Of a stretch of 64,000 bases of DNA, positions 1,470 to 17,445 are shown one piece after another. The stretch spans positions 1 to 64,000 of the forward strand of contig JAKFUS010000040.1 of NCBI GenBank assembly GCA_021732605.1, written 5' to 3'. The notes beneath the pieces are model-generated. The model was not told where the DNA came from. It was given only the letters and a program-made list of their open reading frames with translations, and searched no databases. Source of the stretch: Betaproteobacteria bacterium (GTDB lineage Bacteria; Pseudomonadota; Gammaproteobacteria; Burkholderiales; SG8-41). The position numbers were made by a program, and so were the translations under genes. Each line of letters starts with the position of its first letter. Positions within the stretch are counted from its first letter, which is position 1.

Positions 1470-4400
1470 TCATAACCACACCGCCGCGAGCAGCTTCACA
1501 ACGCCAGGCGGAATCACTACCTTCGGCCCGCGCTTGGGTTCGTGTATCACGCGACTCAAGTCTGATGTCGCAAAGAAAACCTCGCCGATTGGAGAGGCAT
1601 CTGCAACGTAGGGCTTACCGGTAATATCAAACCCTCTGAAAAACTGGTTGCCTCCAACCGTTGAAAAGCCAGAGGTTCGCCTGGAAATCGCATCCTGCAT
1701 ACGATCCGTCAGCGCCCGATCGACAACCACTCTGCCTCCCGGGCTTGGTGGAGGGTTCAACGGAAAACTGAACGGCGGCGCCGGTGATAGGCCCTCGTAA
1801 AAGTAATCCCAGGTGCTATTGGGCGGAGAGAACACCACGGGATCATTCGAGGGCTGACTCATCGCCGCATGAGCAAGTGACGCGTCGCTAAACACCTGTT
1901 CGGTTTCGACGGACAATATATCGCTGGATTCACCCTTCCTCAGTACATAGGTCCAACGGCATGCACCGTCAGCGCTTGTTGAACTTAATACTGCAGTGGT
2001 CGACTGAAAGGACTGCTTTACGCGATTACGCTCAATACTGCGGTAACTGCGCAGTGCCCCGTTAAAGTAATCGATATTCCGACGCTCCTCAATGTCACCC
2101 CCGCGCTCAAAAACACGACCTGTGGTGGTCATTGTTCCCGTGATCGTTCTGGGTGGTGATTCGCAGGCCGCAGTGGTACTGACTGAGCCAGTAATCACCG
2201 GCGACACCTGATTGATCAAAACATTACTCACGAAAGGGCTCTGACCGGTTTGCGTGAAGGCCACTGACGGCACTTCGGCCAGGGTGATCCTCAAATCGTA
2301 GTGCTCTTTTAAAGTTGAATTTCCTGAGGAAATCGACTTGCTGAATCCGCTCACCGTCAATCCGTCCCCGGACACGTAAGCCAGTCCCTGCGGAAGAATG
2401 GTATAGGTCTGGGTGCCCGGCACCGCAGGTAGGGCAATCGTGCCAGAAGTAGTTTGCGGGCTGCCCGCAACGTCCTTGAAGGCTCTCGTGTATGCCAATG
2501 TCGCGGTAGCAGGGTCGAATTGTGGAACAATCGCCCGAAACTGGAACTCGCCGATCTGGGGATTGACCGACTTCGCGGTCCACGCCACGCCGCCGACGCT
2601 CTCAAACGAGTTGGTGGCAGCGCTCTTCACCCAGCTGGTCGCCAAATCCCCGAACTGCGGGACGCCAACAGTCGTTGCCAGCACGTCATAGGAAAAACCG
2701 GACAAATGTTCAGTGAACGCCACTTGCTTGGTGATATAGCCTTTGGCAAGTGCCGGGAAAATCTGCGGGATTACAATCTCGCGCAGCGGGTGGAATTCCG
2801 GGAAATTAACAATCCGGGTGCCGGACTGGTCCGCCCGAAAGCTCACGCGCTGACCCGCCGCGTTGGCGCCGATCAAATACAGAACACCGTTATACGGCGT
2901 AACGACCGCCTTGGCGGCAACAGCCCCGATAATCCCGTTCGCAGCGTCTTCCCGCTCCTCCCCCATGTTGCCGTTGAACACCAGCATGTATTCATTAACC
3001 ACTTTGGGTGACAGCGGCGATTCATCGTTTACAGGTGCGACGAACGAAACCGGTGCGCTCCGGTTGGCATTCGACGCCGCGGAATCAAGCGCAGCAACAG
3101 TCAGGCGCCACGCATTGGGGGTATTGGGGTCACGGCTCGGATCAGCCGGATCGACAGCAACGGGATAACGGTTGCCATCTTTAGCGTCGTAATACAGTGC
3201 AAAGCGCCCGTTCATGGCCTCCGGGCCGAGGTTGATGATCCTGAACTTGGTTGAATCCTGCTCATCCTTCTTGAAGTCGAGCTTACCGCGGAAAAAGTAG
3301 TTGATCATCCCGGCGGAGTAGGCCACGGCGCGGGGGATGAGATGCTTGTACGCCTCATCGAAATTAAAGCGGTTTAAGGCAAATACCGGTTGCGCTCCTT
3401 GGACACGGAGCTGCTCGTCGAAAATCGATTCGCTGCTTGCCCTTGGATTAATCACCGACTTATCCAAGAAATTGTCCTTACCCGTAGTTTCGTAAAATGT
3501 GATCCGCTCCTCAGGCAACGCGGTCATCGAAGGTGGGCAAGGTGGGCTTAGATTCTGGCCGCTGCAAATCTCTTTAACTTTGGGCTCGGTTTTCTTGATT
3601 GGATCGAACACAGGCAACGCGAAGTTAAGAGGGGTGTCGAAATTGGTACCAGCGGAAACGAAATTACGATTGGTAAACTCAGCGAGCCCCTTGCCGTTTT
3701 CCGGTGCGTTTGTCCCGGGCGTCTCGGTGTGCCAGAAACGACGCGGGTTATTGAATACGGAAGTAAAAGCGGATCCGGTAATGTCGTAACCGACAAAACC
3801 GGGGTTCACGGGCAGCGCGCCAGTTATATTCCCTAGGTCGCGGGTCCATAACTCGTAAAAACTTGGCGCATGAGCATTAAGCGGGATGCAAACAAGCTTG
3901 TCGCAATGCACATCGTTTCGGACATGCTGCGGCTGCGCCATATCCTGCAAATGATGCACAACTTGACCCAGGGTTTGGAACACCAAGCCGAACGTTTTTT
4001 CGCGATCTGCAGCGCCTTGTTTGGTAAGTGCGTCGAACAGATATTGCCGTGCGTCTCCGTAGGAAAACTTCTGATCGGAAATCCTTCCGCGCGGCGCCAA
4101 CGCCCAGTCCGGTGAGGACGTTTGTGCTGGAATAAACGGGGCTCTGCTTAACCCCTCGCCGGTTACAGGGTTGTAAAAGTGAAACCTGACCCGCACCTCG
4201 AGAGGCAGCAGCGATACGTTGTCCTCGAAGTCAGCGCCATCCTGGAGAAGCTCTAAAATTGATCTCGACGTATTTTTCGAATTGGGGAACCGTTGCGCAT
4301 TAATTGCCTTGTCGATACCCAGGTTTTTCAGCACCGCAGAATCCAGTTGAAGCGCTGATTGATTTGCTGCTGCCTCTGTCAAAACCCGATGCGTAACTTC

Positions 4401-4475
4401 TTGATAGGCATTCACCTGAGACACCAACCCTGTCAGGAAAAATGCGGGCACAACCCAATGGCGTAGCTTAGTCAT
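1470..4475 (-). CDS. Large exported protein with zinc-dependent phospholipase C / S1-P1 nuclease-like N-terminal domain
   Basis: 1001 aa ORF with signal peptide MTKLRHWVVPAFFLTGLVSQVNA. Motif LGQVVHHLQDMAQPQHVRND resembles the HxxxDxxxPxH metal-binding signature of that superfamily. Confidence 0.7.
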   Translation of the reverse strand: MTKLRHWVVPAFFLTGLVSQVNAYQEVTHRVLTEAAANQSALQLDSAVLKNLGIDKAINAQRFPNSKNTSRSILELLQDGADFEDNVSLLPLEVRVRFHFYNPVTGEGLSRAPFIPAQTSSPDWALAPRGRISDQKFSYGDARQYLFDALTKQGAADREKTFGLVFQTLGQVVHHLQDMAQPQHVRNDVHCDKLVCIPLNAHAPSFYELWTRDLGNITGALPVNPGFVGYDITGSAFTSVFNNPRRFWHTETPGTNAPENGKGLAEFTNRNFVSAGTNFDTPLNFALPVFDPIKKTEPKVKEICSGQNLSPPCPPSMTALPEERITFYETTGKDNFLDKSVINPRASSESIFDEQLRVQGAQPVFALNRFNFDEAYKHLIPRAVAYSAGMINYFFRGKLDFKKDEQDSTKFRIINLGPEAMNGRFALYYDAKDGNRYPVAVDPADPSRDPNTPNAWRLTVAALDSAASNANRSAPVSFVAPVNDESPLSPKVVNEYMLVFNGNMGEEREDAANGIIGAVAAKAVVTPYNGVLYLIGANAAGQRVSFRADQSGTRIVNFPEFHPLREIVIPQIFPALAKGYITKQVAFTEHLSGFSYDVLATTVGVPQFGDLATSWVKSAATNSFESVGGVAWTAKSVNPQIGEFQFRAIVPQFDPATATLAYTRAFKDVAGSPQTTSGTIALPAVPGTQTYTILPQGLAYVSGDGLTVSGFSKSISSGNSTLKEHYDLRITLAEVPSVAFTQTGQSPFVSNVLINQVSPVITGSVSTTAACESPPRTITGTMTTTGRVFERGGDIEERRNIDYFNGALRSYRSIERNRVKQSFQSTTAVLSSTSADGACRWTYVLRKGESSDILSVETEQVFSDASLAHAAMSQPSNDPVVFSPPNSTWDYFYEGLSPAPPFSFPLNPPPSPGGRVVVDRALTDRMQDAISRRTSGFSTVGGNQFFRGFDITGKPYVADASPIGEVFFATSDLSRVIHEPKRGPKVVIPPGVVKLLAAVWL

Positions 4476-5161
4476 GGTTTGAGCAATTCGTTAATCGATC
4501 CACAGTTCGCTGCCTTGAGATTCGCGTCGTTCGCACGAAGGCTTCCAACCACTGAACTTGGGTTTCCTCCAGCACGACGGAATTCAGCATATTGGGCATC
4601 AATTGCTTTGAGCATCTGTGGAAAAGACTCCCACCCACAGGGTGCGCCACCATCGTGACCGACCATCCAGAGAGAACTGTTTAGCGAGTTCAGGGATCGT
4701 TCGTAGTCTTGCAACGCCCCTTTAAACCGTTCCAGCTTGAGTGTCTTTTTGTTGTAAAAGAAAGTGGAAGTGCCATATGTCTGCCAGTAAAAATTGGGAA
4801 ATCCTCCCGCTCGATAGCCAGACTTGAATAACAACAACCGCGGGGAATTACCGCCCTTGTTGCCCATAGTCAAAATCACTTTCGGCCCCCAAGCTGGAAA
4901 GGAGTAGCGTCCGTTCTGGTCGGTTACGGTCTCGAATATCTGAACCTGTTCGATGGGTCTCCCGTTGATGCTGTTCTCGATGTCCCAATTTGCAACGACG
5001 TTCACACCTTCGAGCGGCTTGTTCGTCTCGGCGTCCACCACCCAACCCTCAATGGCCTCAGCGCGATAGGTTGCACACCCCCCCATGGGAATCGTGAGCA
5101 GTGCTGCGCATAACACGAGCAGCCGCGTCAGGTGTATCTGCAATTTCGCGTGATTTTTCAT
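4472..5161 (-). CDS. Putative lipoprotein with carboxypeptidase-regulatory-like domain
   Basis: Start adjusted to MKNHAKLQIHLTRLLVLCAALLTIPMGGCATYRAE (lipobox). EGWVVDAETNKPLEGVNVVANWD is typical of the regulatory-like beta-sandwich fold. The stop overlaps the next start by 4 nt. Confidence 0.65.
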   Translation of the reverse strand: MKNHAKLQIHLTRLLVLCAALLTIPMGGCATYRAEAIEGWVVDAETNKPLEGVNVVANWDIENSINGRPIEQVQIFETVTDQNGRYSFPAWGPKVILTMGNKGGNSPRLLLFKSGYRAGGFPNFYWQTYGTSTFFYNKKTLKLERFKGALQDYERSLNSLNSSLWMVGHDGGAPCGWESFPQMLKAIDAQYAEFRRAGGNPSSVVGSLRANDANLKAANCGSINELLKP

Positions 5162-5174
5162 ATATTTTTCAGAC

Positions 5175-7532
5175 CTACATTGTGTCCAGACGCCAAACGC
5201 CATCTGCATCGCGGATGAAATAGATCAGAAACACTCTAAGCGACCCGTCCGAAGCTGGTTTTGTTACTACATACTCTCCGACCGTATCCGTGACGAGGCC
5301 GGGTTGCGGTGCAGATACTGAGGCAGCAACCGCCGGCAACGAAGACAGCAAAGCGTCGAACACCCGCCCGTAGCGGGCCTGAGCAGACGACGACAGGAAC
5401 TGCATCGCCTTCACCTTATCCCGCGCCGCCAGCGCCCCCGCAAACCCCTGCCACAGGGCTCTCAGCTGCTGATCCAGCACCGCAGGGTCCTGCACCACGA
5501 TCTGGAGGGTTTGCGTTGTCGGGATTCCCGCGCTATCCGTGATCACGAATCGCGCAGGATAGATGCCCAACTGGTTGTAGGTGAATTCAATCGGCGCGGC
5601 CGGATTCGTCGTCGTAAAATCAATCGTCCCATTCCCATCAAAATCCGCCTCGATCCGCTGCACCGTGAGCGCGGTGCTGACGGTAAATTTCACCTTGAGC
5701 GGCGCGATGCCTGAAACGGGTTCGGCGCTGACCTCAACTGCAGCCGGGCCTGTACTGGTCACATTGATGCTCTGTTGCGCGCTGGCCCCATCGAGCGCCT
5801 GTGCTGCTACCGTCAACGTATTGGGGCCAGGCTGCAGGGGCACTGTGGCATAGAAGCGCCCGCCTTCGACGACTGCCACCACGCCATTGACCGTGACACC
5901 GGTATTCGCCGGCCCTTGCACCGTCCCTCTCACCAACACGGTAGAACCTGCAATACTGGCCCCTGCCGTGGGACTGGCGACACTGATTGCAAGGTTAGCG
6001 AGTACCAGGGTGCGCTGCACCGTCGAGCGATTACCCGCCCGGTCAATCGCCGAAAGAACGAATACATTGGCTCCGGACTGCAGCGTGACCGGGAAGCTGA
6101 AACTCGCCCCTGTCTGTGTCAGGCCGCTGCTTTCCAGCACCACCGTCGCCAGCGGATCGTCAATGCTGCCCTGGATCACCACCTGTGGAATCTGGACAAT
6201 CGTACCGTCCGCGGGAATCACGGCGAGGAATTGCGGCGCGATGGTATCTATGCTGAATGCATTGGTGACGGTGTTTGACAGCAAACCGAAGCCGTTCTTC
6301 GCCTGCGCACTGAAGGCGTTGGCCCCTTCCGGCAGTCTCGCTGCTGGCGTGAAACTGGACTGACCGGTATTCGCGTCAAACACGAACTGTGCACCTACGG
6401 AGAGGCCGTTTAGCGTTGCCGTCAGTTGGTAACCGGCCAGGTATTCATTCGGGAATGTGCACGCCACACTGTTGCAGGCCACGCCATAGCCCAAGGTGAA
6501 CAACGGCCGTGGATTATTGGATAACGCATCCTGTAGCGGGCGCACCAGCGTCAGGGTCGGCTCCACCTTGAATACCGGCACCCCCAGCGCTTCGTCCCCG
6601 TCTCTCGCCGGAAAGCTGATCACGAACTCACCGGTATCGGTATAGCGACTGACTGCACGCTCCGTGCCCGCCCACAGCGAGCGGCTGACCGGGTCGAAGG
6701 CCAGTTTCTCCGGTTTACGCAGATTCCGTGACTCCAAATCCACCGTACGCACAAGGGTCCCAGCCCGCGAATACGCCAGCAAGGCTTCTTTCTGCGCTAC
6801 CCATACATTGCCGGTGAGCGGATCAAGCGCAAAGCCGGTGATATTGCGTTGCAGCCGGATGCGCAGGGGGGGATCAATCGGGTTCACCAGTTTGAGTTGT
6901 GCCAAGTCGTTGTCGTCCGCCAGCCAGATCACGCCACCCAGGCTGTCCACTTCGAAGTAACGGGCATCGCCGGCCAGATGACGTCCAAGCGTATAACTCG
7001 CCAGCAGGGTTCCTTGTGCATTGAAATGCCACAGGTTGCGCTTGCCCAACACCCATAGACTACGATCGAGCGCCACACGCAAGCGCCGAATCTCCCCGGG
7101 CGCAGAAAAATTGGTAATGAGTTGTCCCGCAAGCGTCAGGCGATAAATGCGCCGGTCGTCAGTGATCCACACGCCATCATCGGCGGGGTCGACATGCAGC
7201 CGGTCGACTTCATCAAGTCTGGGATTGAGATCGCGAACGCGGATTTCACGCTCCAGCACGCCTTCAGCGCTATAGCGCAAGAGCTTGCGGTCGCGCTTGT
7301 CGAGGGTCCATACGCCGCAATCAGCAGCATTCATCACCAGCCGATGAGGATTCCTCAGGGCAATGACGCGGGTCACCTGATTGGTGCTGGTCTGGACTTG
7401 CCGGATGGAATCGTCATCGGCGTACCAGACGCACGAATCGGCGATGGCAGGCAGACTCAGCACGCCAAATAGCGTCAGGGTTTGGAGAAAACGACTGCAG
7501 AATGAAGTGCCTTCCAACAAGGTGCGCGCCAT
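5175..7532 (-). CDS. Exported multidomain protein: beta-propeller (NHL-like) + Ig-like repeats + PKD-like domain
   Basis: Start adjusted to MARTLLEGTSFCSRFLQTLTLFGVLSLPAIADS. WxxDDxxxxxRL-type blade repeats, IDTIAPQF... Ig-like segments, and a PVSGIAPLKVKFTVSTA...DFDGNGTIDF PKD-like segment. Confidence 0.65.
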   Translation of the reverse strand: MARTLLEGTSFCSRFLQTLTLFGVLSLPAIADSCVWYADDDSIRQVQTSTNQVTRVIALRNPHRLVMNAADCGVWTLDKRDRKLLRYSAEGVLEREIRVRDLNPRLDEVDRLHVDPADDGVWITDDRRIYRLTLAGQLITNFSAPGEIRRLRVALDRSLWVLGKRNLWHFNAQGTLLASYTLGRHLAGDARYFEVDSLGGVIWLADDNDLAQLKLVNPIDPPLRIRLQRNITGFALDPLTGNVWVAQKEALLAYSRAGTLVRTVDLESRNLRKPEKLAFDPVSRSLWAGTERAVSRYTDTGEFVISFPARDGDEALGVPVFKVEPTLTLVRPLQDALSNNPRPLFTLGYGVACNSVACTFPNEYLAGYQLTATLNGLSVGAQFVFDANTGQSSFTPAARLPEGANAFSAQAKNGFGLLSNTVTNAFSIDTIAPQFLAVIPADGTIVQIPQVVIQGSIDDPLATVVLESSGLTQTGASFSFPVTLQSGANVFVLSAIDRAGNRSTVQRTLVLANLAISVASPTAGASIAGSTVLVRGTVQGPANTGVTVNGVVAVVEGGRFYATVPLQPGPNTLTVAAQALDGASAQQSINVTSTGPAAVEVSAEPVSGIAPLKVKFTVSTALTVQRIEADFDGNGTIDFTTTNPAAPIEFTYNQLGIYPARFVITDSAGIPTTQTLQIVVQDPAVLDQQLRALWQGFAGALAARDKVKAMQFLSSSAQARYGRVFDALLSSLPAVAASVSAPQPGLVTDTVGEYVVTKPASDGSLRVFLIYFIRDADGVWRLDTM

Positions 7533-7847
7533 CGCGATCCAACTTCTATGGCGCGAAAAACCCTGCTGCGAATAGTTTCGCAAGTCCCCTGCCCCTGTCA
7601 CGATTCCCACAAGCACCCCTTTGTTGTTTTAGCTCGTGTTGCGACGACTATCTGGAGTAGCCTGCCGCTCACTGCTTCCGACCCGCAGGCACCTCATGTA
7701 TAACTGCCTGATTCGCATTGGTAACACACCCAATGAAGTCGGGCAAACTTAACAAAGTGGTAGATTTTTTGAATGCGCCTCGTCCCAACCAATTGTTTTT
7801 AAAACAATATTTAAACGGGTACGGCCATAGCCCAGTATCGCCAACTA

Positions 7848-8558
7848 CTATTTTTTCGACACTCGCGCCAATCCATCATTCGGTTTCGGCACAACAGCAA
7901 CGGGGGCCTGCACATCCCGCAGCGGTTGAGTCAATGGCGCCGGTCTATCCACGATTGTCGATGTCGGCAAAGTCCCCAAAGTAGGCGGCGGCGTATTCGC
8001 AGGCAAAGCCAAACCTTCTGTGGATAATGCCGGCACAATGGCAATACTTACCTTATGTTTCAACGGTGGATAAATCAATTCAATCGCGCTATTACTGATT
8101 GATTCCACAACATAACCACCGTCGAGAGTGTCACCCGGGTTGATGGCGACTGGCGTGTCACCCTTTGACACAAACACCTGAGACTTGCTGTCTTGCAGCA
8201 ATTGCCCCGCAAAGCGATAAAGCATGGGAGGCGGCGGCGGTGGCGCTGCAACTATTTTTGGCGGCGGAAGTTGCCAGGATTGCAGACCGAAAAGCTCTAT
8301 CTTTGCATCGCCCAACGTCGCGCGTTCGGGCAATTCTCTCAAAATGCCGTTATGGTTGCCTTCTTGCTCCGCTACACGCTCTGTCGATAGGATGTTCACA
8401 CCCTTGGACTTACTGGCCAGAGACGCAAGCTGTGGCGAACCAGCAAGCTCATCAGGTGCAGGCGCGAATACTGCCAACCCCACCACACCAGCGAGGGTCA
8501 GGAACAACAACGCTTTCCGGTTTCGTGCGAGCACTTTTGGGACCGTAGAAAATTCCAC
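7848..8558 (-). CDS. GspC/PilP-like secretion system protein
   Basis: Single TM near the N-terminus (ALLFLTLAGVVGLAVFA), proline-rich linker, then RFAGQLLQDSKSQVFVSKGDTPVAINPGDTLDGGYVVESISNSAIELIYPP, resembling the PilP/GspC homology region. GTG start at 8558 proposed because the upstream ATG lies in a palindrome. Confidence 0.55.
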   Translation of the reverse strand: MEFSTVPKVLARNRKALLFLTLAGVVGLAVFAPAPDELAGSPQLASLASKSKGVNILSTERVAEQEGNHNGILRELPERATLGDAKIELFGLQSWQLPPPKIVAAPPPPPPMLYRFAGQLLQDSKSQVFVSKGDTPVAINPGDTLDGGYVVESISNSAIELIYPPLKHKVSIAIVPALSTEGLALPANTPPPTLGTLPTSTIVDRPAPLTQPLRDVQAPVAVVPKPNDGLARVSKK

Positions 8559-8607
8559 GAAAATGCCGCGCCGACTATGTAGTAGCCGGCGACAGCGTAT
8601 GCACATT

Positions 8608-8623
8608 GCATACAATTGTATGC
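8608..8623. promoter_or_regulatory. Perfect 16-bp palindrome GCATACAATTGTATGC in the divergent promoter region
   Basis: Self-reverse-complementary; located between the divergent GspC-like gene and the gspG-led operon. Confidence 0.5.
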
Positions 8624-8790
8624 TCGCGACAGCCTAACATTACGTCTATTGCGAAAGCTAGCACCGCGCACCGTAGCAGCTATACTAATAATGCCTTCGC
8701 TCAAGTTCACGCCGCCTGATCAACATATTCTCCTCCACACATTTAGTAGTGCGGTAGACAAAATAGTCCTTCCCAGAATAAATTCTGCAT

Positions 8791-9237
8791 ATGAAAAATA
8801 GAATGCGGTTACTGACCCCCTCGGTAAATTGCCGAGCAGGCGGAGGATTTACACTCCTCGAATTGCTGGTAGTTGTTGCCATCATCGGCCTGTTGATGGG
8901 CTATGTGGGGCCCCGTTACTTTAGCCAGATTGGAAAGTCTGAAATCAGCGTCGCCAAAGCACAGATCGACGCGCTGGAAAAAGCGCTTGATCAGTACCGG
9001 CTTGATACCGGTCACTATCCCGCCACCGAACCGGGATTGGCCGCACTGGTGAAGCGTCCTGCCAATGAACCAAAGTGGAACGGGCCTTATCTCAAAAAAG
9101 AAGTGCCATTTGATCCCTGGGGCAAGGCATACATATACAAAATCCCCGGAGAACACGGGGACTATGACCTGATTTCATATGGCCAAGATGGTCAACCTGG
9201 CGGTACCGGCGAGAACGCCGACGTAACCAATCGCTGA
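8791..9237 (+). CDS. gspG: Type II secretion major pseudopilin GspG-like
   Basis: Type III signal GG/FTLLELLVVVAIIGLL. C-terminal DPWGKAYIYKIPGEHGDYDLISYGQDGQPGGTGENADV is the classical GspG calcium-site region. Confidence 0.9.
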   Translation: MKNRMRLLTPSVNCRAGGGFTLLELLVVVAIIGLLMGYVGPRYFSQIGKSEISVAKAQIDALEKALDQYRLDTGHYPATEPGLAALVKRPANEPKWNGPYLKKEVPFDPWGKAYIYKIPGEHGDYDLISYGQDGQPGGTGENADVTNR

Positions 9238-9251
9238 AGCGCCATCGTCTC

Positions 9252-10442
9252 GTGCGCTACCAACTCAAGTGCGTAACGCAAGATGGTCAGATCGAACAAC
9301 TCGATCTGCAAGCTATGGACGAAACGGGGGCTCGTGATCAGGCTGCGGACATGGGCTACTCTGTTCTCACCATACAATCACGCGCAGACTTGGTGTCACT
9401 TTGTCGGCGAGAAAACAAACGATTCCCCGTTTTGCTTTTCAGTCAGGAATTGCTGGTATTACTCAATGCCGGTCTACCACTGGTCGTCGCCATCGAAACA
9501 CTCATGGAAAAAGAGAACCAATCCAATGTGCGCACCACATTAGAGCGCATTGCCGACACCCTGCGCCAAGGCCGTACCTTATCCACCGCGCTAGAACAAC
9601 ATCCCGGTACTTTCAGTGCGCTCTATATTGCTACTGTGCGAGCGAGCGAGCGAACCAGCGATCTCGGACCGGCGCTTGTCCGCTATGTGGCCTACCAGAA
9701 CCAAATCGACGCCCTTCGCAAACGACTGGTCAATGCGTCAATTTACCCCGCATTACTCATATTTGCGGGCGGAACGGTAAGCCTGTTTCTGTTGCTCTAC
9801 GTGGTACCGCGCTTCGGCAAGGTATACGAAGATCGCAGCGCTGATCTGCCTTGGGCATCGAAGATGCTGCTCTACTGGGCACAGGCTGTGGAAGGACATG
9901 CGCTGCCGATAATCAGCGTACTGGTCGCATTGGGCATGGCACTTTGGTATGTATTAAGATTGCCTGCGGTACGTGCCAGACTTGAATCGCTGCTTTGGCG
10001 CTTGCCCGTTATCGGCGAGCAAATGAAGGTGTACCAACTGGCGCGTTTCTACCGCACCATCGGCATGCTGCTGCGCGGTGGCATGCCATTGGTCGCGGCA
10101 TTGAATATGGGCGCCAGTCTGCTTCACCCAGTCATGCGAGAGCGTCTGGTGAATGCCAGTTTGGCGATCAGTGAAGGGCGGCCCGTGTCGGACTCAATGC
10201 ACGACAATGACCTGACCACACCCGTCGCACTGCGCTTGCTATCCGTTGGAGAGCAGAGCGGAAACATGGGGGAGATGATGGATAGCATTGCGCTGTTCCA
10301 TGATGAGGAAATCAGTCGCTGGGTGGATTGGTTTACCCGTCTCTTTGAACCCATACTCATGGGAATAATCGGCATTTTGATCGGCGGCATCGTCATACTG
10401 ATGTACATGCCCATTTTCGAACTCGCCGGGAGCCTGAAATGA
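9252..10442 (+). CDS. gspF: Type II secretion / pilus inner-membrane platform protein GspF-like
   Basis: 396 aa with duplicated GspF domains and TM segments; LLSVGEQSGNMGEMMDSIALFHDEE motif. GTG start. Confidence 0.9.
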   Translation: MRYQLKCVTQDGQIEQLDLQAMDETGARDQAADMGYSVLTIQSRADLVSLCRRENKRFPVLLFSQELLVLLNAGLPLVVAIETLMEKENQSNVRTTLERIADTLRQGRTLSTALEQHPGTFSALYIATVRASERTSDLGPALVRYVAYQNQIDALRKRLVNASIYPALLIFAGGTVSLFLLLYVVPRFGKVYEDRSADLPWASKMLLYWAQAVEGHALPIISVLVALGMALWYVLRLPAVRARLESLLWRLPVIGEQMKVYQLARFYRTIGMLLRGGMPLVAALNMGASLLHPVMRERLVNASLAISEGRPVSDSMHDNDLTTPVALRLLSVGEQSGNMGEMMDSIALFHDEEISRWVDWFTRLFEPILMGIIGILIGGIVILMYMPIFELAGSLK

Positions 10443-12133
10443 GTACCGTCGCGCCCGACCACATCAGCATCATTTCCGCACAGCAAGTCGCAGAAGCCCG
10501 GGCCGCTGCTGCGCGCTCCCGCGGGCGGCTGGTCGAGGCGCTTGAGACACAACTCGGACTACCCCCCGATGCATTCGTGTCAGCACTCGGCGCCACTCTG
10601 CGACTACCGGCCATGCCCATGGAGATGCTCCGCCGCGCAACCCCCATGTTCGACATTGTTCCATTCAACGAGTGTTCGCAGCGTGGGTGTGTATTGATAA
10701 GCGACGAGGACGGCAACACAATTCTCGTCACTGATGATCCGTTTAGCAGCGCATTGCAATCATGGGCGGATGAACGCATTCAATCACCTTACACTTGGGC
10801 CCTTGTACACAAGGGTGATCTCGTCGCATTTCTTGCCAGTCACGAGGAAATGCTGCGCGCGCTTGATGCCGTGCATACCTCCGATGCGCAGGTTACCGAT
10901 GACAGAGAGCGGCATGAAGATCTGTCGCTCAAGGCAATCAACGATGAAACCAGCGAAGTAGTCCGGCTGGTGCGTTCCACGTTGCGTGACGCCCTCAAGA
11001 ACGGCGCCAGCGACATTCACATGGAAACAGTTTCCAGCGGACTCACCATCAAATTCCGCATTGACGGCATTCTTTCACATGTCAAATCCATATCGGACAC
11101 CCAGCAGGCTGAACAGGCACTTTCGCGCATAAAAGTTCTCGCGGAGCTTGATGTCACGGAGCGGCGTGTACCGCAAGACGGTCGTTTCAAAGCACTTGCC
11201 CAGGGCAGAACGATCGATTTCAGGGTATCCATCATGCCGAGTATTTACGGCGAAGATGCCGTGTTACGGGTACTCGACAAACAATCGCTTTACGAGAGCA
11301 CACAACAACAACTGTCGCTTGACACCCTTGGTTTCGAACCTGCAGACATTCGCATGCTCCGTCGACTGTCGCATGAACCATACGGAATGATGCTTGTGAC
11401 TGGCCCGACCGGCAGCGGCAAGACCACGACGCTATACGCAGCGATTTCTGAGATCAATAGCGGCCAGGAAAAAATAGTCACGATCGAGGATCCGGTCGAG
11501 TATCAGTTGCCTGGTGTTCTCCAGATCCCCGTAAACGAGAAAAAGGGACTCACCTTTGCGCGCGGACTGCGCTCTATTCTGCGACATGATCCAGACAAAA
11601 TCATGATTGGCGAAATCCGTGATACAGAAACAGCAAACATTGCTGTGCAATCCGCGCTGACAGGGCATCTGGTATTCACCACGGTACATGCAAACAACGT
11701 TTTTGATGTAATTGGGCGGTTCATGCACATGAACGTCGATCTCTACGGTTTTGTATCCGCGCTGAACGCAATCCTCGCGCAGCGCCTGGTCCGTTTGATT
11801 TGCCCGCATTGCGCAGAAGATCACAAACCCGATGTTGTGGTACTGCAGGAGTCCGGAATCGCTGCCGCTGATGTCTTGAATTACCGCTTCCGAATCGGCC
11901 GTGGCTGCCGCGAATGCCGAGGCTCGGGCTTCAAAGGGCGTAAGGCCATTGCCGAACTCATGATACTCAACGACGAATTGCGCGAGCTCATCATTACCCG
12001 TGCGCCCGTCCGCCAACTCAAAGAAGCTGCACACCGTTCGGGCACCCGTTTCCTGCGCGATGCAGCGCTTGATGCGGTAAAGCTAGGCAACACCACGCTG
12101 GAGGAAATAAACCGTGTCACCTTTGTTGCGTGA
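10439..12133 (+). CDS. gspE: Secretion ATPase GspE/PilB-like
   Basis: Walker [20 protein letters not shown], RxILRHDPDKIMIGEIRD, and tetracysteine CPHC...CREC. Confidence 0.93.
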   Translation: MSTVAPDHISIISAQQVAEARAAAARSRGRLVEALETQLGLPPDAFVSALGATLRLPAMPMEMLRRATPMFDIVPFNECSQRGCVLISDEDGNTILVTDDPFSSALQSWADERIQSPYTWALVHKGDLVAFLASHEEMLRALDAVHTSDAQVTDDRERHEDLSLKAINDETSEVVRLVRSTLRDALKNGASDIHMETVSSGLTIKFRIDGILSHVKSISDTQQAEQALSRIKVLAELDVTERRVPQDGRFKALAQGRTIDFRVSIMPSIYGEDAVLRVLDKQSLYESTQQQLSLDTLGFEPADIRMLRRLSHEPYGMMLVTGPTGSGKTTTLYAAISEINSGQEKIVTIEDPVEYQLPGVLQIPVNEKKGLTFARGLRSILRHDPDKIMIGEIRDTETANIAVQSALTGHLVFTTVHANNVFDVIGRFMHMNVDLYGFVSALNAILAQRLVRLICPHCAEDHKPDVVVLQESGIAAADVLNYRFRIGRGCRECRGSGFKGRKAIAELMILNDELRELIITRAPVRQLKEAAHRSGTRFLRDAALDAVKLGNTTLEEINRVTFVA

Positions 12134-12950
12134 CCATCTGCTGATCTCTCTCGCGCCCGGCGAACTGAGCTGGGTGCGATTAAGCGGCGCACTGAAACCG
12201 AAGGCTCGCGACAAGTGTGTTGTGACGATTGAGAACGTCCACGGCGCGCGGTCTTGGGATGGCGCTGTTTCCGCACTACGCGAAGAGGCCATGAAATGGC
12301 ACAGCGATCGCCTTCTCGTTCGGATCGTATTGTCGAATCATTTTGTCCGATACACACTCGTTCCTCACAGCCAGGGCATCAACGGCGACAAAGAAGAACT
12401 AGCGCTTGCGAAATTTCATTTTTCCAAAGTTCATGGCGAAACCGTCCAAGACTGGGACATCCGACTAAGCCCCGCTTATTATTCTGGCGGGGCACGACTT
12501 GCCTGTGCAATAGACATCGCCCTCATCGAGACATTACGGCAAATTTTTCCCCGTGACCGACGGCAACAACTCGCTTCGGTGCAGCCACTACTCATGTCTG
12601 CATTTAACAGCAGTGCTTCTCTCGTTCCGGAAACAGGCGCTTGGCTGCTGACTGTCGAGCATGACCGAACGTGCGTGGCTTTGCTTTCGGGCAAAACATG
12701 GCGTGCGGTGCAAAATGTGAAAGGACAGTTTTTGGGTTCGGAGGCTTGGGTCAGCTTGGTGGAGCGTGAGCTCTGGCGCGTTGATCTCGATACCGTTCCT
12801 GACACCATATTGGTGCTTTCCCCGGAAACGCCGTCTTTGCCACACCAATCCAACGGCGCCTGGAAAATGTCAGAGATGCAACTTCGCTGGCCTGTCGGAA
12901 TGCAACCCGTCCGCGACAGCATTTATGCAACAGCAATTAGCGCGGCATGA
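12114..12950 (+). CDS. PilM/GspL cytoplasmic-domain-like protein
   Basis: Position between GspE and the PilN/PilO-like ORFs; weak similarity to actin-like PilM/GspL. ATGA overlap with the next gene. Confidence 0.45.
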   Translation: MSPLLRDHLLISLAPGELSWVRLSGALKPKARDKCVVTIENVHGARSWDGAVSALREEAMKWHSDRLLVRIVLSNHFVRYTLVPHSQGINGDKEELALAKFHFSKVHGETVQDWDIRLSPAYYSGGARLACAIDIALIETLRQIFPRDRRQQLASVQPLLMSAFNSSASLVPETGAWLLTVEHDRTCVALLSGKTWRAVQNVKGQFLGSEAWVSLVERELWRVDLDTVPDTILVLSPETPSLPHQSNGAWKMSEMQLRWPVGMQPVRDSIYATAISAA

Positions 12951-13471
12951 AACGCGATCTTCTCGAACTCGATTACGTTGCACCACCACGCCGCCCGGTG
13001 TGGCTCGGACTTTTGTTACTGGTAATCGCATTGGGAACCAGCGCCGATCTCGCACTGCGGTTTATTGATGCGCGCAGCGAACTTTTACGCACTACGGCTG
13101 CGCAGGGGCTTCTGAATACGGAGCGCCGGACGGCAAAGCCCATACCAGCGTCCCGACTTGATGAACAGGTCAAAGCTGCTGAGGCTATCGTACGCCAGCT
13201 GACCCTGCCCTGGGCATCTCTTATCGAGACACTGGAGAGCACATCGGCGACAGATGTCGCGGTGCTGCAAATCCAGCCGGAAACACAACAGGGAACAGTT
13301 CGCATCTCCGCTGAAGCACGTAATTCGGACGCCATGTGGCAGTACTTAATGAGTCTCTCTGCTACGAGCACACTAAACAACGTCCACCTGCTCAGTCATC
13401 AAGTACAACTCGATGATCCGACCAAGCCCCTGCAATTTTCCGTACAGGCCGCATTCAGGATTGCTCCATGA
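12947..13471 (+). CDS. PilN-like bitopic membrane protein
   Basis: Short cytoplasmic N-terminus, one TM (VWLGLLLLVIALGTSADLAL), coiled region and ferredoxin-like C-terminus; syntenic position. Confidence 0.5.
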   Translation: MKRDLLELDYVAPPRRPVWLGLLLLVIALGTSADLALRFIDARSELLRTTAAQGLLNTERRTAKPIPASRLDEQVKAAEAIVRQLTLPWASLIETLESTSATDVAVLQIQPETQQGTVRISAEARNSDAMWQYLMSLSATSTLNNVHLLSHQVQLDDPTKPLQFSVQAAFRIAP

Positions 13472-13998
13472 GACATTTGTATTATTTGATGCGCTGTCTG
13501 GGACCGCTCGGCGTTGCCGGACTCTCATTACTCCTGTGTTGTGCAGTGTTTTACTTCAATGCTGTCAAACCTGCCGAGTCAGAAGTCACATCTCAGCGCG
13601 ATGCCAGTCAACGCATGAAATCGCGATCGCCCTATCAACCCGTTTCAATGGATAAGCGCGAATCCGATCTTCGCAGGTTTAACAATTTATTCCCGCCGAC
13701 TGAAGACATCGCTCATGAAATGAGAAACCTTTGGGTGAATGCGGAAAAATTCGAGATTGATCTGCACCAAGGGGAATACCGCCTCGAATCTGGCGGTCCG
13801 GGGCTTGCTCGCTACCGCGTAACACTACCTATGCGTGCCTCCTATGCCCAGATTCGAAAATTCATCAATTTCATACTTAAAGAAACCCCGACCATTTCCA
13901 TAGATGGATTACGCTTTGAGCGCAAAAAAATCGGCGAAACCAGACTCGAAGCACAGCTCCGGCTTACACTCTATTTTCGCCCCTCAGTTCAGCCCTGA
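13468..13998 (+). CDS. PilO/GspM-like bitopic membrane protein
   Basis: N-terminal TM (LGVAGLSLLLCCAVFYF), periplasmic YRVTLPMRASYAQIRKFINFILKETPTISIDGLRFER typical of PilO-like folds. Confidence 0.55.
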   Translation: MRHLYYLMRCLGPLGVAGLSLLLCCAVFYFNAVKPAESEVTSQRDASQRMKSRSPYQPVSMDKRESDLRRFNNLFPPTEDIAHEMRNLWVNAEKFEIDLHQGEYRLESGGPGLARYRVTLPMRASYAQIRKFINFILKETPTISIDGLRFERKKIGETRLEAQLRLTLYFRPSVQP

Positions 13999-14060
13999 CG
14001 TTTCAACAATGCACCATCAAAAATGATCCAAATAATATTCATTGCCTCAGGGGATGCAAC

Positions 14061-16025
14061 ATGAAACTGATCAACACTCGATTGCCGATCAAAGATGCAC
14101 TGCTTTCCATCGCGGCAGCATTGATTCTCGCGGGCTGCTTGACCAACCCCACCATAAAAGAGTCACGTGATCACTTCGATTCTGGTAATGGCGAAGAGGC
14201 GCTCATGGTCTTGGAAAAAGCCTCTCGCGAGAACCCGACTAATCTCGCATATCGCTCAGAATATTTCCGTCAACGAGAGCTGGCAGTCACGCAATGGTTG
14301 GGCCAAGCAGAGACACTACGCCAAGCAGGACAACACGATCCGGCTGCAGCGATCTATCGTGTCATCCTGAAATTCGACCCTCAAAATGCGCGCGCTCAGA
14401 CTGGCATCACCGGACTGGAGGCTGACAAACGTCACCGTGTGGCGATCACAAATGCCGAGAACCTCATCAAGGAAAACAAATTTATCGAAGCACACGACAT
14501 CCTTCGTCCTATTTTTAATGAGAATCCGACGCACCGAGACGCTCGCCGGTTGCAGCGCGAGATTGATGACAAAACCCTCAAGCCCGCGATCGTCACACGT
14601 CAGATCAAGGCTACTACAACAAAACCCATTACACTTGAATTGCGCGAAGTCTCTCTACGCTCGGTATTCGACGTGATCTCCAGAACCACCGGACTAAGCT
14701 TTGTTTTCGACAAGGACTTTCGTGGCGATCAACGCACAACCATTGCTGTGCGCAACGCGACTGTAGATGAGCTTGTTGGGCTGGTGCTTTCTACCAATCA
14801 ACTCGAGCAGAAGTTCGTCAACGAGAATACGTTGATGATTTACCCTAATACGCCACAGAAGCAACGCGAATACCAGGAATTGGTGATACGGGCGTTTTAT
14901 CTTAAGAACGTAGCCGCAAAACAAACCGCAAGCATGATCCGCACGCTGGTAAAAACCCGGGACATCTTCATTGACGACGCACTTAATATGCTCGTCATCA
15001 AAGATACCCCCAACGCGATACGCATGGCGGAGAAGCTGGTTGCCGCGCACGATCTCGCAGAGCCTGAAGTCATGCTGGAAGTTGAAGTACTCGAAGTCGG
15101 CTCCAACCGGTTACTTGATTTAGGGCTGCGCTATCCGGATTCCGTCGCATGGAGCTTGGTGGGCGGGGTTACAACACCGACTGGCGGTACCATCGGCACT
15201 CCCGGCGTTTTGTCGCTTACAGAATGGCTCAATCGCAACGCTGGCTTGGTACGACTTACTGTAACCAATCCTCTGTTTTTACTGTCATTACGCCAACAAG
15301 ATGGGAGCACCAGCGTTTTGGCAAACCCGCGCATCCGTGTCAAAAACAGGGAAAAAGCCAAAATACACATCGGCGACCGCGTACCCGTCATTACCACAAC
15401 CGCCGCCGCCGCCGGCGGATTCGTATCCGAATCGGTGAGCTATCTCGATGTCGGACTCAAGCTGGAAGTCGAACCTCTCGTGCATCTGCAGGATGAAATC
15501 GGCATAAAGGTAGGTCTGGAGGTGAGCAATATCGTGCGCGAAATTCGCAGCACCAATTCCAATACCCTGACTTATCAAGTCGGCACGCGAAACGCGCAGA
15601 CCAACCTGCGGCTGAAGGACGGGGAAACGCAAATACTCGCAGGACTAATCAGCAATGAAGATCGGCGCACTGCCAATCGCGTTCCGGGAATTGGCGCACT
15701 GCCTGTGGTAGGACGTTTATTCTCGGACACGCATGAAACCCGCGGCAAAACCGAGATCGTGCTGCTGATAACGCCGCGCCTGTTAAGAACACTAGACCGC
15801 CCTGACAATCGCGTGGTCGAATTCTCAGCCGGTACCGAAGCATCATCCGGCACGCTATCCGTATCAGCAACAACCCCTGTTGCTCAACCATCATCTCCGA
15901 TTGCGGTTCCAATAGCGCCACAGCCCACACCCGCTGTTCAATCCGCTCCGGTAACAGAACGCCAGTCGCCCTCCCCAGTAAAGCCGACACTGGTGCCGTT
16001 TGGCGGGTTGCAACCCAGTCCCTGA
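14061..16025 (+). CDS. gspD: Lipidated secretin (GspD/PilQ-like) with N-terminal TPR repeats
   Basis: Lipobox LILAGC, TPR-like region, secretin N domains, and C-terminal secretin domain ending VPGIGALPVVGRLFSDTHETRGKTEIVLLITPRLLR. Confidence 0.88.
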   Translation: MKLINTRLPIKDALLSIAAALILAGCLTNPTIKESRDHFDSGNGEEALMVLEKASRENPTNLAYRSEYFRQRELAVTQWLGQAETLRQAGQHDPAAAIYRVILKFDPQNARAQTGITGLEADKRHRVAITNAENLIKENKFIEAHDILRPIFNENPTHRDARRLQREIDDKTLKPAIVTRQIKATTTKPITLELREVSLRSVFDVISRTTGLSFVFDKDFRGDQRTTIAVRNATVDELVGLVLSTNQLEQKFVNENTLMIYPNTPQKQREYQELVIRAFYLKNVAAKQTASMIRTLVKTRDIFIDDALNMLVIKDTPNAIRMAEKLVAAHDLAEPEVMLEVEVLEVGSNRLLDLGLRYPDSVAWSLVGGVTTPTGGTIGTPGVLSLTEWLNRNAGLVRLTVTNPLFLLSLRQQDGSTSVLANPRIRVKNREKAKIHIGDRVPVITTTAAAAGGFVSESVSYLDVGLKLEVEPLVHLQDEIGIKVGLEVSNIVREIRSTNSNTLTYQVGTRNAQTNLRLKDGETQILAGLISNEDRRTANRVPGIGALPVVGRLFSDTHETRGKTEIVLLITPRLLRTLDRPDNRVVEFSAGTEASSGTLSVSATTPVAQPSSPIAVPIAPQPTPAVQSAPVTERQSPSPVKPTLVPFGGLQPSP

Positions 16026-16040
16026 TCCACAGCTTAGCCT

Positions 16041-16520
16041 GTGAAACATCGTTCCGCATCTGGCTTCACGCTAATCGAACTCGTAATTACGGTGGCGATC
16101 ATTGCCATACTCGCCTCCATCGCGATGCCCCTGAACGAACTAACTGTCCAGCGCGGCAAGGAGCAAGACTTGCGGCGAGCACTGCGTGAATTACGGGATG
16201 GTATTGATGCCTACAAACAAGCCTCCGACGAGGGTCGAATTCTTAAGAGAGTCGGCGAATCTGGTTACCCGAAACGCCTCGAAGATCTGATTGACGGTAT
16301 AGATGATCAGAAAAACCCAAAGAAAGAAAAAATCTATTTTCTGCGCCGCATCCCGCGCGACCCCTTGGACAACGACATCAACAAAACTGCTGTGGACACA
16401 TGGGGCAAGCGCAGTTACTCAAGCCCTCCCGATGACCCCAGAGACGGCGATGATGTATTCGACATATACACCCTTGCCGCCGGCAAAGGCATCAACGGAC
16501 GGCCTTATCGGGAGTGGTAA
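16041..16520 (+). CDS. Pseudopilin
   Basis: Type III signal SG/FTLIELVITVAIIAILASIAMP. Confidence 0.85.
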   Translation: MKHRSASGFTLIELVITVAIIAILASIAMPLNELTVQRGKEQDLRRALRELRDGIDAYKQASDEGRILKRVGESGYPKRLEDLIDGIDDQKNPKKEKIYFLRRIPRDPLDNDINKTAVDTWGKRSYSSPPDDPRDGDDVFDIYTLAAGKGINGRPYREW

Positions 16521-16897
16521 TGCGCATTCATTCAAACGCATTTACATTAATCGAGCTCATCGTTGTGCTCGCCATTGTTGCGTTGTTGCTTACCCTGGCA
16601 CTGCCGAGATATTTTTCCAGCATTGATCGCTCCAAAGAGGCCGTGCTCAAGGAAAATCTCTACCAAGTCCGCGATGCAATCAACAAATACTACGCTGACA
16701 AAGGCAAGTATCCGGAGTCTCTCGAAGCGCTTACCAGTGACAAATACCTGAGAAAATTACCAATAGACCCTGTCACAGAGAGTACCGCAACGTGGATTAT
16801 CGTGCCCCCGGAAGATACCCAAAAAGGCGGTGTCTACGATGTTAAAAGCGGCGCTCAGGGCAAAGCTGTGGACGGCACTGCCTTCACCGAGTGGTAA
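16514..16897 (+). CDS. Pseudopilin (GspG-like) with Ala at the -1 cleavage position
   Basis: NA/FTLIELIVVLAIVALLLTLALPRYFSS. Confidence 0.85.
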   Translation: MVMRIHSNAFTLIELIVVLAIVALLLTLALPRYFSSIDRSKEAVLKENLYQVRDAINKYYADKGKYPESLEALTSDKYLRKLPIDPVTESTATWIIVPPEDTQKGGVYDVKSGAQGKAVDGTAFTEW

Positions 16898-17445
16898 TCA
16901 AACGCATCATGACACGCCTGCTAAAACATCATGACTCGCCGCATACAGCGCCTTCGGCCCAATATGGGTTTACCTATCTCACGGTTATTTTTATATTGGC
17001 AATACTGACTGGCGGTCACGCGCTCATCGGAGAAGTCTGGCACACCACATCCCTGCAAGAAAAAGAAGCGGAACTCCTGTTTGTGGGTAACCAGTACCGT
17101 AAAGCTATTGAACGCTATTACCTCGGCGGACCTCGTCAGTTCCCGCGGACCATCAACGACCTGCTGAAAGACCCTCGCACGCCGACTACCGAACGCTACC
17201 TGCGCCAAACCTATGCCGACCCTGTCACTGGAAAAACAGAGTGGGGCATCGTCAAAGCGCCAGACGGCAGCATCATTGGTGTATATAGCCTGTCCGAACG
17301 CAAGCCGCTTAAATCTGCAAACTTCCGATTACAGGACAAAAGCTTTGAGAAATCTGAAAAGTATTCCGACTGGAAGTTTATATACTCGCCCGTTCAATTG
17401 ACCATCAACCCCACACCCGCCGCAAAACCTCTTGGTGGACCCTGA
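16891..17445 (+). CDS. Pseudopilin-like protein lacking Glu+5
   Basis: YG/FTYLTVIFILAILTGGHALIGEVWHTTSLQEKEAELLFVGNQYRKAIERYY; overlaps the previous pseudopilin gene. Confidence 0.75.
   Translation: MVIKRIMTRLLKHHDSPHTAPSAQYGFTYLTVIFILAILTGGHALIGEVWHTTSLQEKEAELLFVGNQYRKAIERYYLGGPRQFPRTINDLLKDPRTPTTERYLRQTYADPVTGKTEWGIVKAPDGSIIGVYSLSERKPLKSANFRLQDKSFEKSEKYSDWKFIYSPVQLTINPTPAAKPLGGP

What the first reader, a model, noticed from the sequence alone, without database searches (positions are those of the whole stretch)
1470..17445. Self-contained non-canonical T2SS / type IV pilus-like machine linked to three large exported proteins
The operon at 8791-17445 (pseudopilin, GspF, GspE, PilM/N/O-like, secretin, three more pseudopilins) is tightly coupled by 4-20 nt overlaps and is divergent to a PilP/GspC-like gene. 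The adjacent minus-strand cluster encodes three signal-peptide-bearing proteins: a 1001 aa metal-hydrolase-like protein, a lipoprotein, and a propeller/Ig/PKD protein. No prepilin peptidase and no standard gspH-K set is present. Mixed PilMNO-like and Gsp-like parts with linked exported cargo suggest a dedicated secretion or surface-display system. The closest established precedent I can name is the 'unorthodox' T2SS class described in Ralstonia, and equivalence is not shown here. That the three proteins are its substrates is inference.
Basis: partly seen in the sequence, partly recalled or inferred. Interest (0 to 1): 0.7.

Follow-up and report, generated by a model that had tools for sequence, protein, structure and literature searches.

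The report
Betaproteobacterial "unorthodox" type II secretion machine
This is one copy of a widespread but unstudied protein-export machine of Betaproteobacteria, related to type II secretion systems and type IV pili but a lineage of its own, sitting beside large exported proteins that it probably, though not provably, puts outside the cell.

Summary
Ten machine genes (8791-17445) plus a divergent PilP-like gene form one set, beside three exported-protein genes. It is not a one-off. The same 11-gene order (G-F-E-M-N-O-P-D and three pseudopilins) recurs in about 90 betaproteobacterial loci, and the secretin family is in 61 of 150 order-mates. ATPase and secretin trees place it outside canonical T2SS, T4aP and MSH, as its own fully supported clade. 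M folds like PilM/GspL, O matches PilO, and the secretin is a TPR-fused lipoprotein. This genome has no canonical GspD but a second copy of the machine, which lies next to the genome's only detected RHS gene. Relatives carry RHS/SpvB proteins, proteases or cellulases beside or inside the operon; RHS genes lie near it about ten times more often than chance. The three linked genes are a cassette (Zn-phospholipase-C-like, lipoprotein, propeller/Ig/PKD). It sits beside the machine only in this genus and elsewhere occurs without it, so the link is plausible but not exclusive. Most likely a Sec-dependent secretion machine with swappable cargo.

The parts
1470..4475 (-). c1: 1001 aa exported protein with a Zn-dependent phospholipase C-like N-terminal domain and a large uncharacterised C-terminal part
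   Evidence: Signal peptide ending VNA|Y; invariant H10, D66, H80, H155, D159, H165, H171 in nine relatives (residue numbers of the aligned fragment); PDB phospholipase C profile hits
4472..5161 (-). c2: 229 aa lipoprotein (lipobox ...MGGC) with a carboxypeptidase-regulatory-like domain
   Evidence: pairs with c1 in G122 and G045
5175..7532 (-). c3: exported protein with N-terminal propeller-like repeats, Ig (Glucodextran_B, Big_13) and PKD domains
   Evidence: homologues in G046, G122, G045, G039, G022
7533..7847 (.). Intergenic stretch; in the nearest relatives the PilP-like gene continues into a cohesin-like domain that is absent here
7848..8558 (-). P: PilP/GspC-like periplasmic protein, relocated and divergent; usually between O and D
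8791..9237 (+). G: major pseudopilin, Glu5 present
   Evidence: TIGR01710 175 bits, over cut-off 88.85
9252..10442 (+). F: inner-membrane platform protein
   Evidence: PF00482 8.7e-48; TIGR02120 250 bits, below cut-off 424
10439..12133 (+). E: assembly ATPase, clade distinct from GspE, PilB and MshE
   Evidence: PF00437 5e-122; trees
12114..12950 (+). M: actin-fold cytoplasmic protein, PilM/GspL-like
   Evidence: AlphaFold2 pLDDT 92.7; best PDB folds PilM E 4e-13, cyto-EpsL E 4e-11
12947..13471 (+). N: PilN-like inner-membrane protein
   Evidence: weak PF05137, gene order, alignment A3
13468..13998 (+). O: PilO/GspM-like inner-membrane protein
   Evidence: PDB PilO profile E 1e-7; T2SSM_b E 0.003
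14061..16025 (+). D: secretin made as a lipoprotein with N-terminal TPRs, STN, Secretin_N and Secretin domains
   Evidence: own clade
16041..16520 (+). H1: minor pseudopilin, Glu5 present
   Evidence: N_methyl 5.5e-8
16514..16897 (+). H2: minor pseudopilin, Glu5 present
   Evidence: N_methyl 1.2e-6
16891..17445 (+). H3: pseudopilin-like protein lacking Glu5, GspK-like in that respect but short
   Evidence: position 5 never Glu among the common readings in relatives

Best explanation
The operon encodes a betaproteobacterial 'unorthodox' type II secretion-like machine. Cargo reaches the periplasm by Sec (or Tat). The ATPase E, held at the inner membrane by M-N-O and F, polymerises a short pseudopilus of G under a tip of H1, H2 and the Glu5-less H3. 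The pseudopilus pushes folded cargo through D, a secretin that probably takes itself to the outer membrane because it is a lipoprotein fused to a TPR pilotin-like domain. P couples the inner platform to D. A prepilin peptidase from elsewhere processes the pseudopilins. Cargo genes next to the operon are exchanged over evolution; here they are c1-c3. Shown by computation: components, conserved operon, separate clade, repeated linkage to exported proteins. Inferred: that it secretes protein, that c1-c3 are substrates, self-piloting, shared peptidase.
For: Conserved 11-gene operon in about 90 loci. Literature match to the Ralstonia unorthodox T2SS and a homologous Ralstonia operon with an RHS neighbour. 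ATPase and secretin clades 100/100 apart from GspE/D, PilB/Q, MshE/L. M fold = PilM/GspL, O = PilO. Lipobox in 77 of 91 secretins and TPR in 52 of 61. H3 lacks Glu5 as GspK does. Exported enzymes lie inside the operon in relatives: beta-helix protein in L065, two amidohydrolases in L066, GH44 cellulase with CBM2 in L122; M4 protease, subtilases and heparinase-like proteins lie next to it. RHS clusters near the machine: 5 of 36 against 0.48 expected, P 1e-4; RHS 4 of 40 against 0 of 40 at canonical T2SS; the RHS link needs at least 11 changes on the secretin tree. Own genome has no canonical GspD at 1e-80.
Against: No experiment exists for any member that I could find. The c1-c3 cassette occurs without the machine (G122, G125). 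Large exported proteins in general are not clearly enriched once uncounted gsp genes at control loci are allowed for (correction estimated by hand). G alone cannot tell a pseudopilus from a pilus. No prepilin peptidase was located.
Confidence: 0.7

Rival explanations
1. The operon builds a surface pilus (MSH-like adhesion pilus) rather than secreting protein; the neighbouring proteins are surface proteins exported by other routes.
For: PilM, N, O, P are separate as in T4P and MSH. In the larger ATPase tree the nearest clade is MshE, though weakly (SH-aLRT 94). MSH loci also lack a prepilin peptidase (PMC6668835).
Against: The major subunit passes the GspG equivalog cut-off. No retraction ATPase or MshM/MshN-type genes in the operon. 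Secreted hydrolases sit inside the operon in relatives. MshL cut-off not met; separate secretin clade.
Confidence: 0.2
2. Linkage to RHS, SpvB, PLC-like and other exported genes reflects shared residence in variable genomic islands, not a substrate relation.
For: The machine is found on plasmids and megaplasmids and in 1-3 copies per genome. The c1-c3 cassette lies far from the machine in G045 and G039. Most RHS genes of machine-bearing genomes lie elsewhere.
Against: Genes lie immediately beside or inside the operon and are mostly signal-peptide proteins; the pattern recurs at least 11 times on the tree and RHS was not seen at 40 canonical T2SS loci.
Confidence: 0.25
3. A canonical T2SS that has merely diverged or lost genes.
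For: GspG, GspF and GspE homology; EpsL-like fold of M.
Against: E, F and D all miss the T2SS equivalog cut-offs. Own clade in both trees, 100/100. Presence is independent of canonical GspD across 150 genomes (odds ratio 0.85).
Confidence: 0.05

Closest known systems
[quoted passage not shown]
   Same: Seven core gsp genes plus four hypothetical genes between gspE and gspD; about 9-10 kb; rhs gene adjacent in one cluster; homologous secretin (45% identity over 87% on a Ralstonia megaplasmid)
   Different: In the window P is moved upstream and divergent, so three genes lie between E and D; cargo slot holds c1-c3; no RHS gene at this copy. The GMI1000 clusters themselves were not aligned here.
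Canonical T2SS (Gsp)
   Same: GspG equivalog, GspF/E/D homologues, actin-fold M, Glu5-less pseudopilin
   Different: No fused GspL, no PDZ GspC, no large GspK, no gspO; D is a TPR lipoprotein; separate clades
Type IVa pilus (PilMNOPQ)
   Same: Separate PilM, N, O, P-like proteins; PilO profile match
   Different: PilB and PilQ cut-offs not met; no PilT; separate clades
MSH pilus
   Same: Single locus, no prepilin peptidase, separate PilM/N-type proteins, TPR protein associated with the secretin (MshN; PMC6668835)
   Different: MshL cut-off not met; TPR fused to the secretin; ATPase and secretin outside the MSH clade
HxcQ-type lipidated secretin (own knowledge, not tested)
   Same: Secretin made as a lipoprotein, thought to be self-piloting
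   Different: Here a TPR domain is fused as well and a cohesin-like domain is often added

Membership tests
Unorthodox T2SS (Ralstonia type) | 11-gene cluster with core gsp genes and 3-4 unnamed genes, those between gspE and gspD | tested here: met
   Operon in about 90 loci; literature. In the window three of the four are in place and the fourth (P) is divergent
Unorthodox T2SS (Ralstonia type) | Secretin homologous to the Ralstonia copies | tested here: met
   45% identity over 87%; same clade as L052
Unorthodox T2SS (Ralstonia type) | Adjacent rhs gene (reported for one cluster only, so not defining for all) | tested here: not met
   Not beside the window copy, but beside the second copy in this genome and in sister G046
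Canonical T2SS | GspD, GspE, GspF equivalogs | tested here: not met
   155.7 against 351, 472 against 630, 250 against 424 bits
Canonical T2SS | GspG major pseudopilin | tested here: met
   175 bits over 88.85
Canonical T2SS | ATPase and secretin inside the T2SS clade | tested here: not met
Type IVa pilus | PilB and PilQ equivalogs, same clades | tested here: not met
   475 against 676 and 156 against 284 bits; trees
MSH pilus | MshL equivalog, MshE clade | tested here: not met
   96.5 against 250 bits
Type II secretion as a function | Machine-dependent release of folded periplasmic protein | not testable with these tools
   needs mutants and secretome
Zn-dependent phospholipase C (c1) | Conserved trinuclear zinc ligand pattern and fold | tested here: inconclusive
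   Motif conserved and PDB profile E 0.001; single-sequence fold failed, pLDDT 32

The most novel reading that the evidence does not exclude
The family is a separate class of type IV filament machine of Betaproteobacteria: a dedicated secretion system with exchangeable cargo cassettes (RHS/SpvB giants, hydrolases, PLC-like proteins), in which the cohesin-like domain carried by the secretin, or by PilP in the window's lineage, takes part in cargo or partner recognition.
Probability: 0.25. Interest if true: 0.75.

Novelty: new member of a known kind. Interest (0 to 1): 0.5.

Why it matters
Ralstonia genomics has listed 'unorthodox T2SS' clusters for years without defining what they are. The survey here shows one well-defined lineage, separate from T2SS, T4aP and MSH, as common in this order as canonical GspD (61 against 60 of 150 genomes) and independent of it. 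Genomes counted as lacking a T2SS, including this one, may still secrete enzymes and RHS-type proteins through it. It also gives a plausible exit for Sec-signal RHS proteins outside type VI secretion.

Tried and rejected
Canonical T2SS, T4aP or MSH membership: rejected by equivalog cut-offs and two trees. Exclusive machine-cargo pairing for c1-c3: rejected by searches in 150 genomes. General enrichment of big exported proteins: raw 0.86 against 0.37 per 10 kb, but the control flanks still contained uncounted gsp genes, so I do not rely on it. Frameshift of P removing its cohesin domain: no cohesin-like sequence was found in the other frames, so loss rather than frameshift. Single-sequence AlphaFold of c1 failed. 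M profile against PDB sequences found nothing; only the fold search placed it. A motif scan for a prepilin peptidase in the window and five own-genome stretches found none. First greedy ORF calling was poor in high-GC loci and was replaced by a codon-usage caller. Literature searches for a described link between this machine type and TPS/PEP-CTERM or RHS cargo gave nothing beyond the Ralstonia rhsB remark. Resemblance to the Geobacter atypical T2SS (OxpG) is a recalled lead only and was not tested.

Full report
OBSERVATION. Pfam assigns GspG, GspF, GspE, a secretin with STN, Secretin_N and TPR domains, and methylation-motif pseudopilins. Six of nine junctions overlap by 4-20 nt and three have gaps of 14-62 nt. 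NCBIfam shows GspG over its equivalog cut-off (175 against 88.85 bits), whereas F, E and D miss the T2SS cut-offs, E and D also miss those of T4aP, and D that of MSH.

THE MACHINE IS A FAMILY. A scan of GTDB genomes with the secretin profile returned 80 loci, nearly all Betaproteobacteria, with more beyond the limit. Ten plasmid records have it too. With a codon-usage gene caller, the order G-F-E-M-N-O-P-D-H1-H2-H3 recurs across these loci. In 150 order-mates the secretin family occurs in 61 genomes (hits of at least about 285 bits, counted by hand), sometimes in 2-3 copies. Canonical GspD is in 60, and the two are independent (odds ratio 0.85). In a phylum-wide sample all six positives belonged to the same order. 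This genome has no canonical GspD at E 1e-80 but two copies of the machine: the window and C10 (L175).

THE UNNAMED GENES. M gives a confident model (pLDDT 92.7) whose best PDB folds are PilM (E 4e-13) and the cytoplasmic domain of EpsL/GspL (E 4e-11). O matches PilO (E 1e-7). The PilP-like gene, divergent in the window, lies between O and D in most relatives. The secretin carries a lipobox in 77 of 91 loci and TPR repeats in 52 of 61, which suggests a self-piloting lipoprotein (inference). H3 shows no Glu5 among the common readings of its motif, unlike G, H1 and H2. That is also true of GspK (own knowledge), although H3 is much shorter. Many relatives carry a cohesin-like domain at the secretin's C-terminus (PF00963 in 16 of 61). 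In the window's nearest relatives it sits on P instead (E 2e-7), and in the window P ends before it.

PHYLOGENY. ATPase (43 rows) and secretin (61 rows) maximum-likelihood trees place the family in one clade, 100/100, outside canonical T2SS, T4aP and MSH, each of which is itself fully supported. The deeper order is unresolved.

CARGO. c1 has a phospholipase C-like N-terminal domain, c2 is a lipoprotein, and c3 has propeller-like, Ig and PKD parts. Sister genome G046 keeps c1-c2-c3 beside the machine and continues into an RHS cluster. In L061, the nearest relative outside the genus, the same slot holds an RHS-repeat protein. The second machine copy in this genome is flanked by a 1298 aa RHS protein, the only RHS gene detected in the genome. 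But the cassette also exists away from the machine: G122 has c3-(c2-c1)x3 and G125 has c3-like plus c1, both without this machine; in G045 and G039 it is on another contig.

Across relatives, exported enzymes lie next to or inside the operon: a beta-helix protein between E and M (L065), two amidohydrolases between M and N (L066), a GH44 cellulase with a cellulose-binding domain between D and the pseudopilins (L122), subtilases, an M4 protease, multicopper oxidase-like and peroxidase proteins, and SpvB/TcdB-midN/FG-GAP proteins. Another 15 loci are followed by a PEP-CTERM protein and a two-partner (FHA-type) pair. In 19 machine-bearing genomes 5 of 36 RHS clusters lie within 15 kb of a machine against 0.48 expected (P 1e-4). 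RHS genes flank 4 of 40 machine loci and 0 of 40 canonical T2SS loci (P 0.06). The RHS link needs 11-13 changes on the secretin tree, so it arose or was lost many times.

KNOWN SYSTEMS. Ralstonia papers describe 'unorthodox T2SS' clusters: seven core genes with four hypothetical genes between gspE and gspD (PMC5080846), 11-gene clusters in GMI1000 (PMC10875864), and an rhsB neighbour (PMC6428702). The homologous operon on a Ralstonia megaplasmid (L052) has 45% secretin identity and a 1727 aa RHS neighbour. I file the window as a member of that kind. I found no paper that defines the family, its clade or its cargo, but the library holds only open-licence papers.

LIMITS. Many loci come from MAGs. 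Gene calls are from my own script, and RHS was called by motif or Pfam. Control loci still contained uncounted gsp genes. Prepilin peptidase and function were not tested. The step from linkage to substrate is inference.

Noticed in passing
L060:3424-4524 (P), secretins of L134, L119, L110 and others: A cohesin-like domain sits on the secretin C-terminus in many relatives, has moved to the PilP-like protein in the window's nearest relatives, and is lost in the window. Its partner is unknown.
   Followed up: partly
L089, L078, L106 and 12 other loci, downstream of H3: A block of LuxR-type regulator, PEP-CTERM protein, about 500 aa exported protein without Pfam match, POTRA/TpsB and TPS/FHA-type protein follows the operon; gained or lost at least six times on the tree.
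   Followed up: partly
L300 (G122:C192): c2-c1 tandemly triplicated behind c3, in a genome without this machine but with a canonical GspD.
   Followed up: partly
G000:C7:41895-43460 (L002): A PilB-like ATPase clade (with X_L241, X_L243, X_L244) apart from GspE, PilB and MshE; system not identified.
   Followed up: no
G000:C9 and C49 (L263, L264): MshL-type secretins in this genome, so it also carries MSH-like systems.
   Followed up: no
L053, L059, L078, L084, L087, L092, L127 and others, beside gspG: A recurrent small exported protein (17 loci; annotated as a lytic transglycosylase in L053 and L059) next to the operon, perhaps for passage through the cell wall.
   Followed up: no
L056 (Cupriavidus metallidurans CH34 megaplasmid), genes after H3: Multicopper oxidase-like and cadherin/SdrD-type giant proteins follow the operon, reminiscent of the OmpB substrate of the atypical Geobacter T2SS (recalled, untested).
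   Followed up: no
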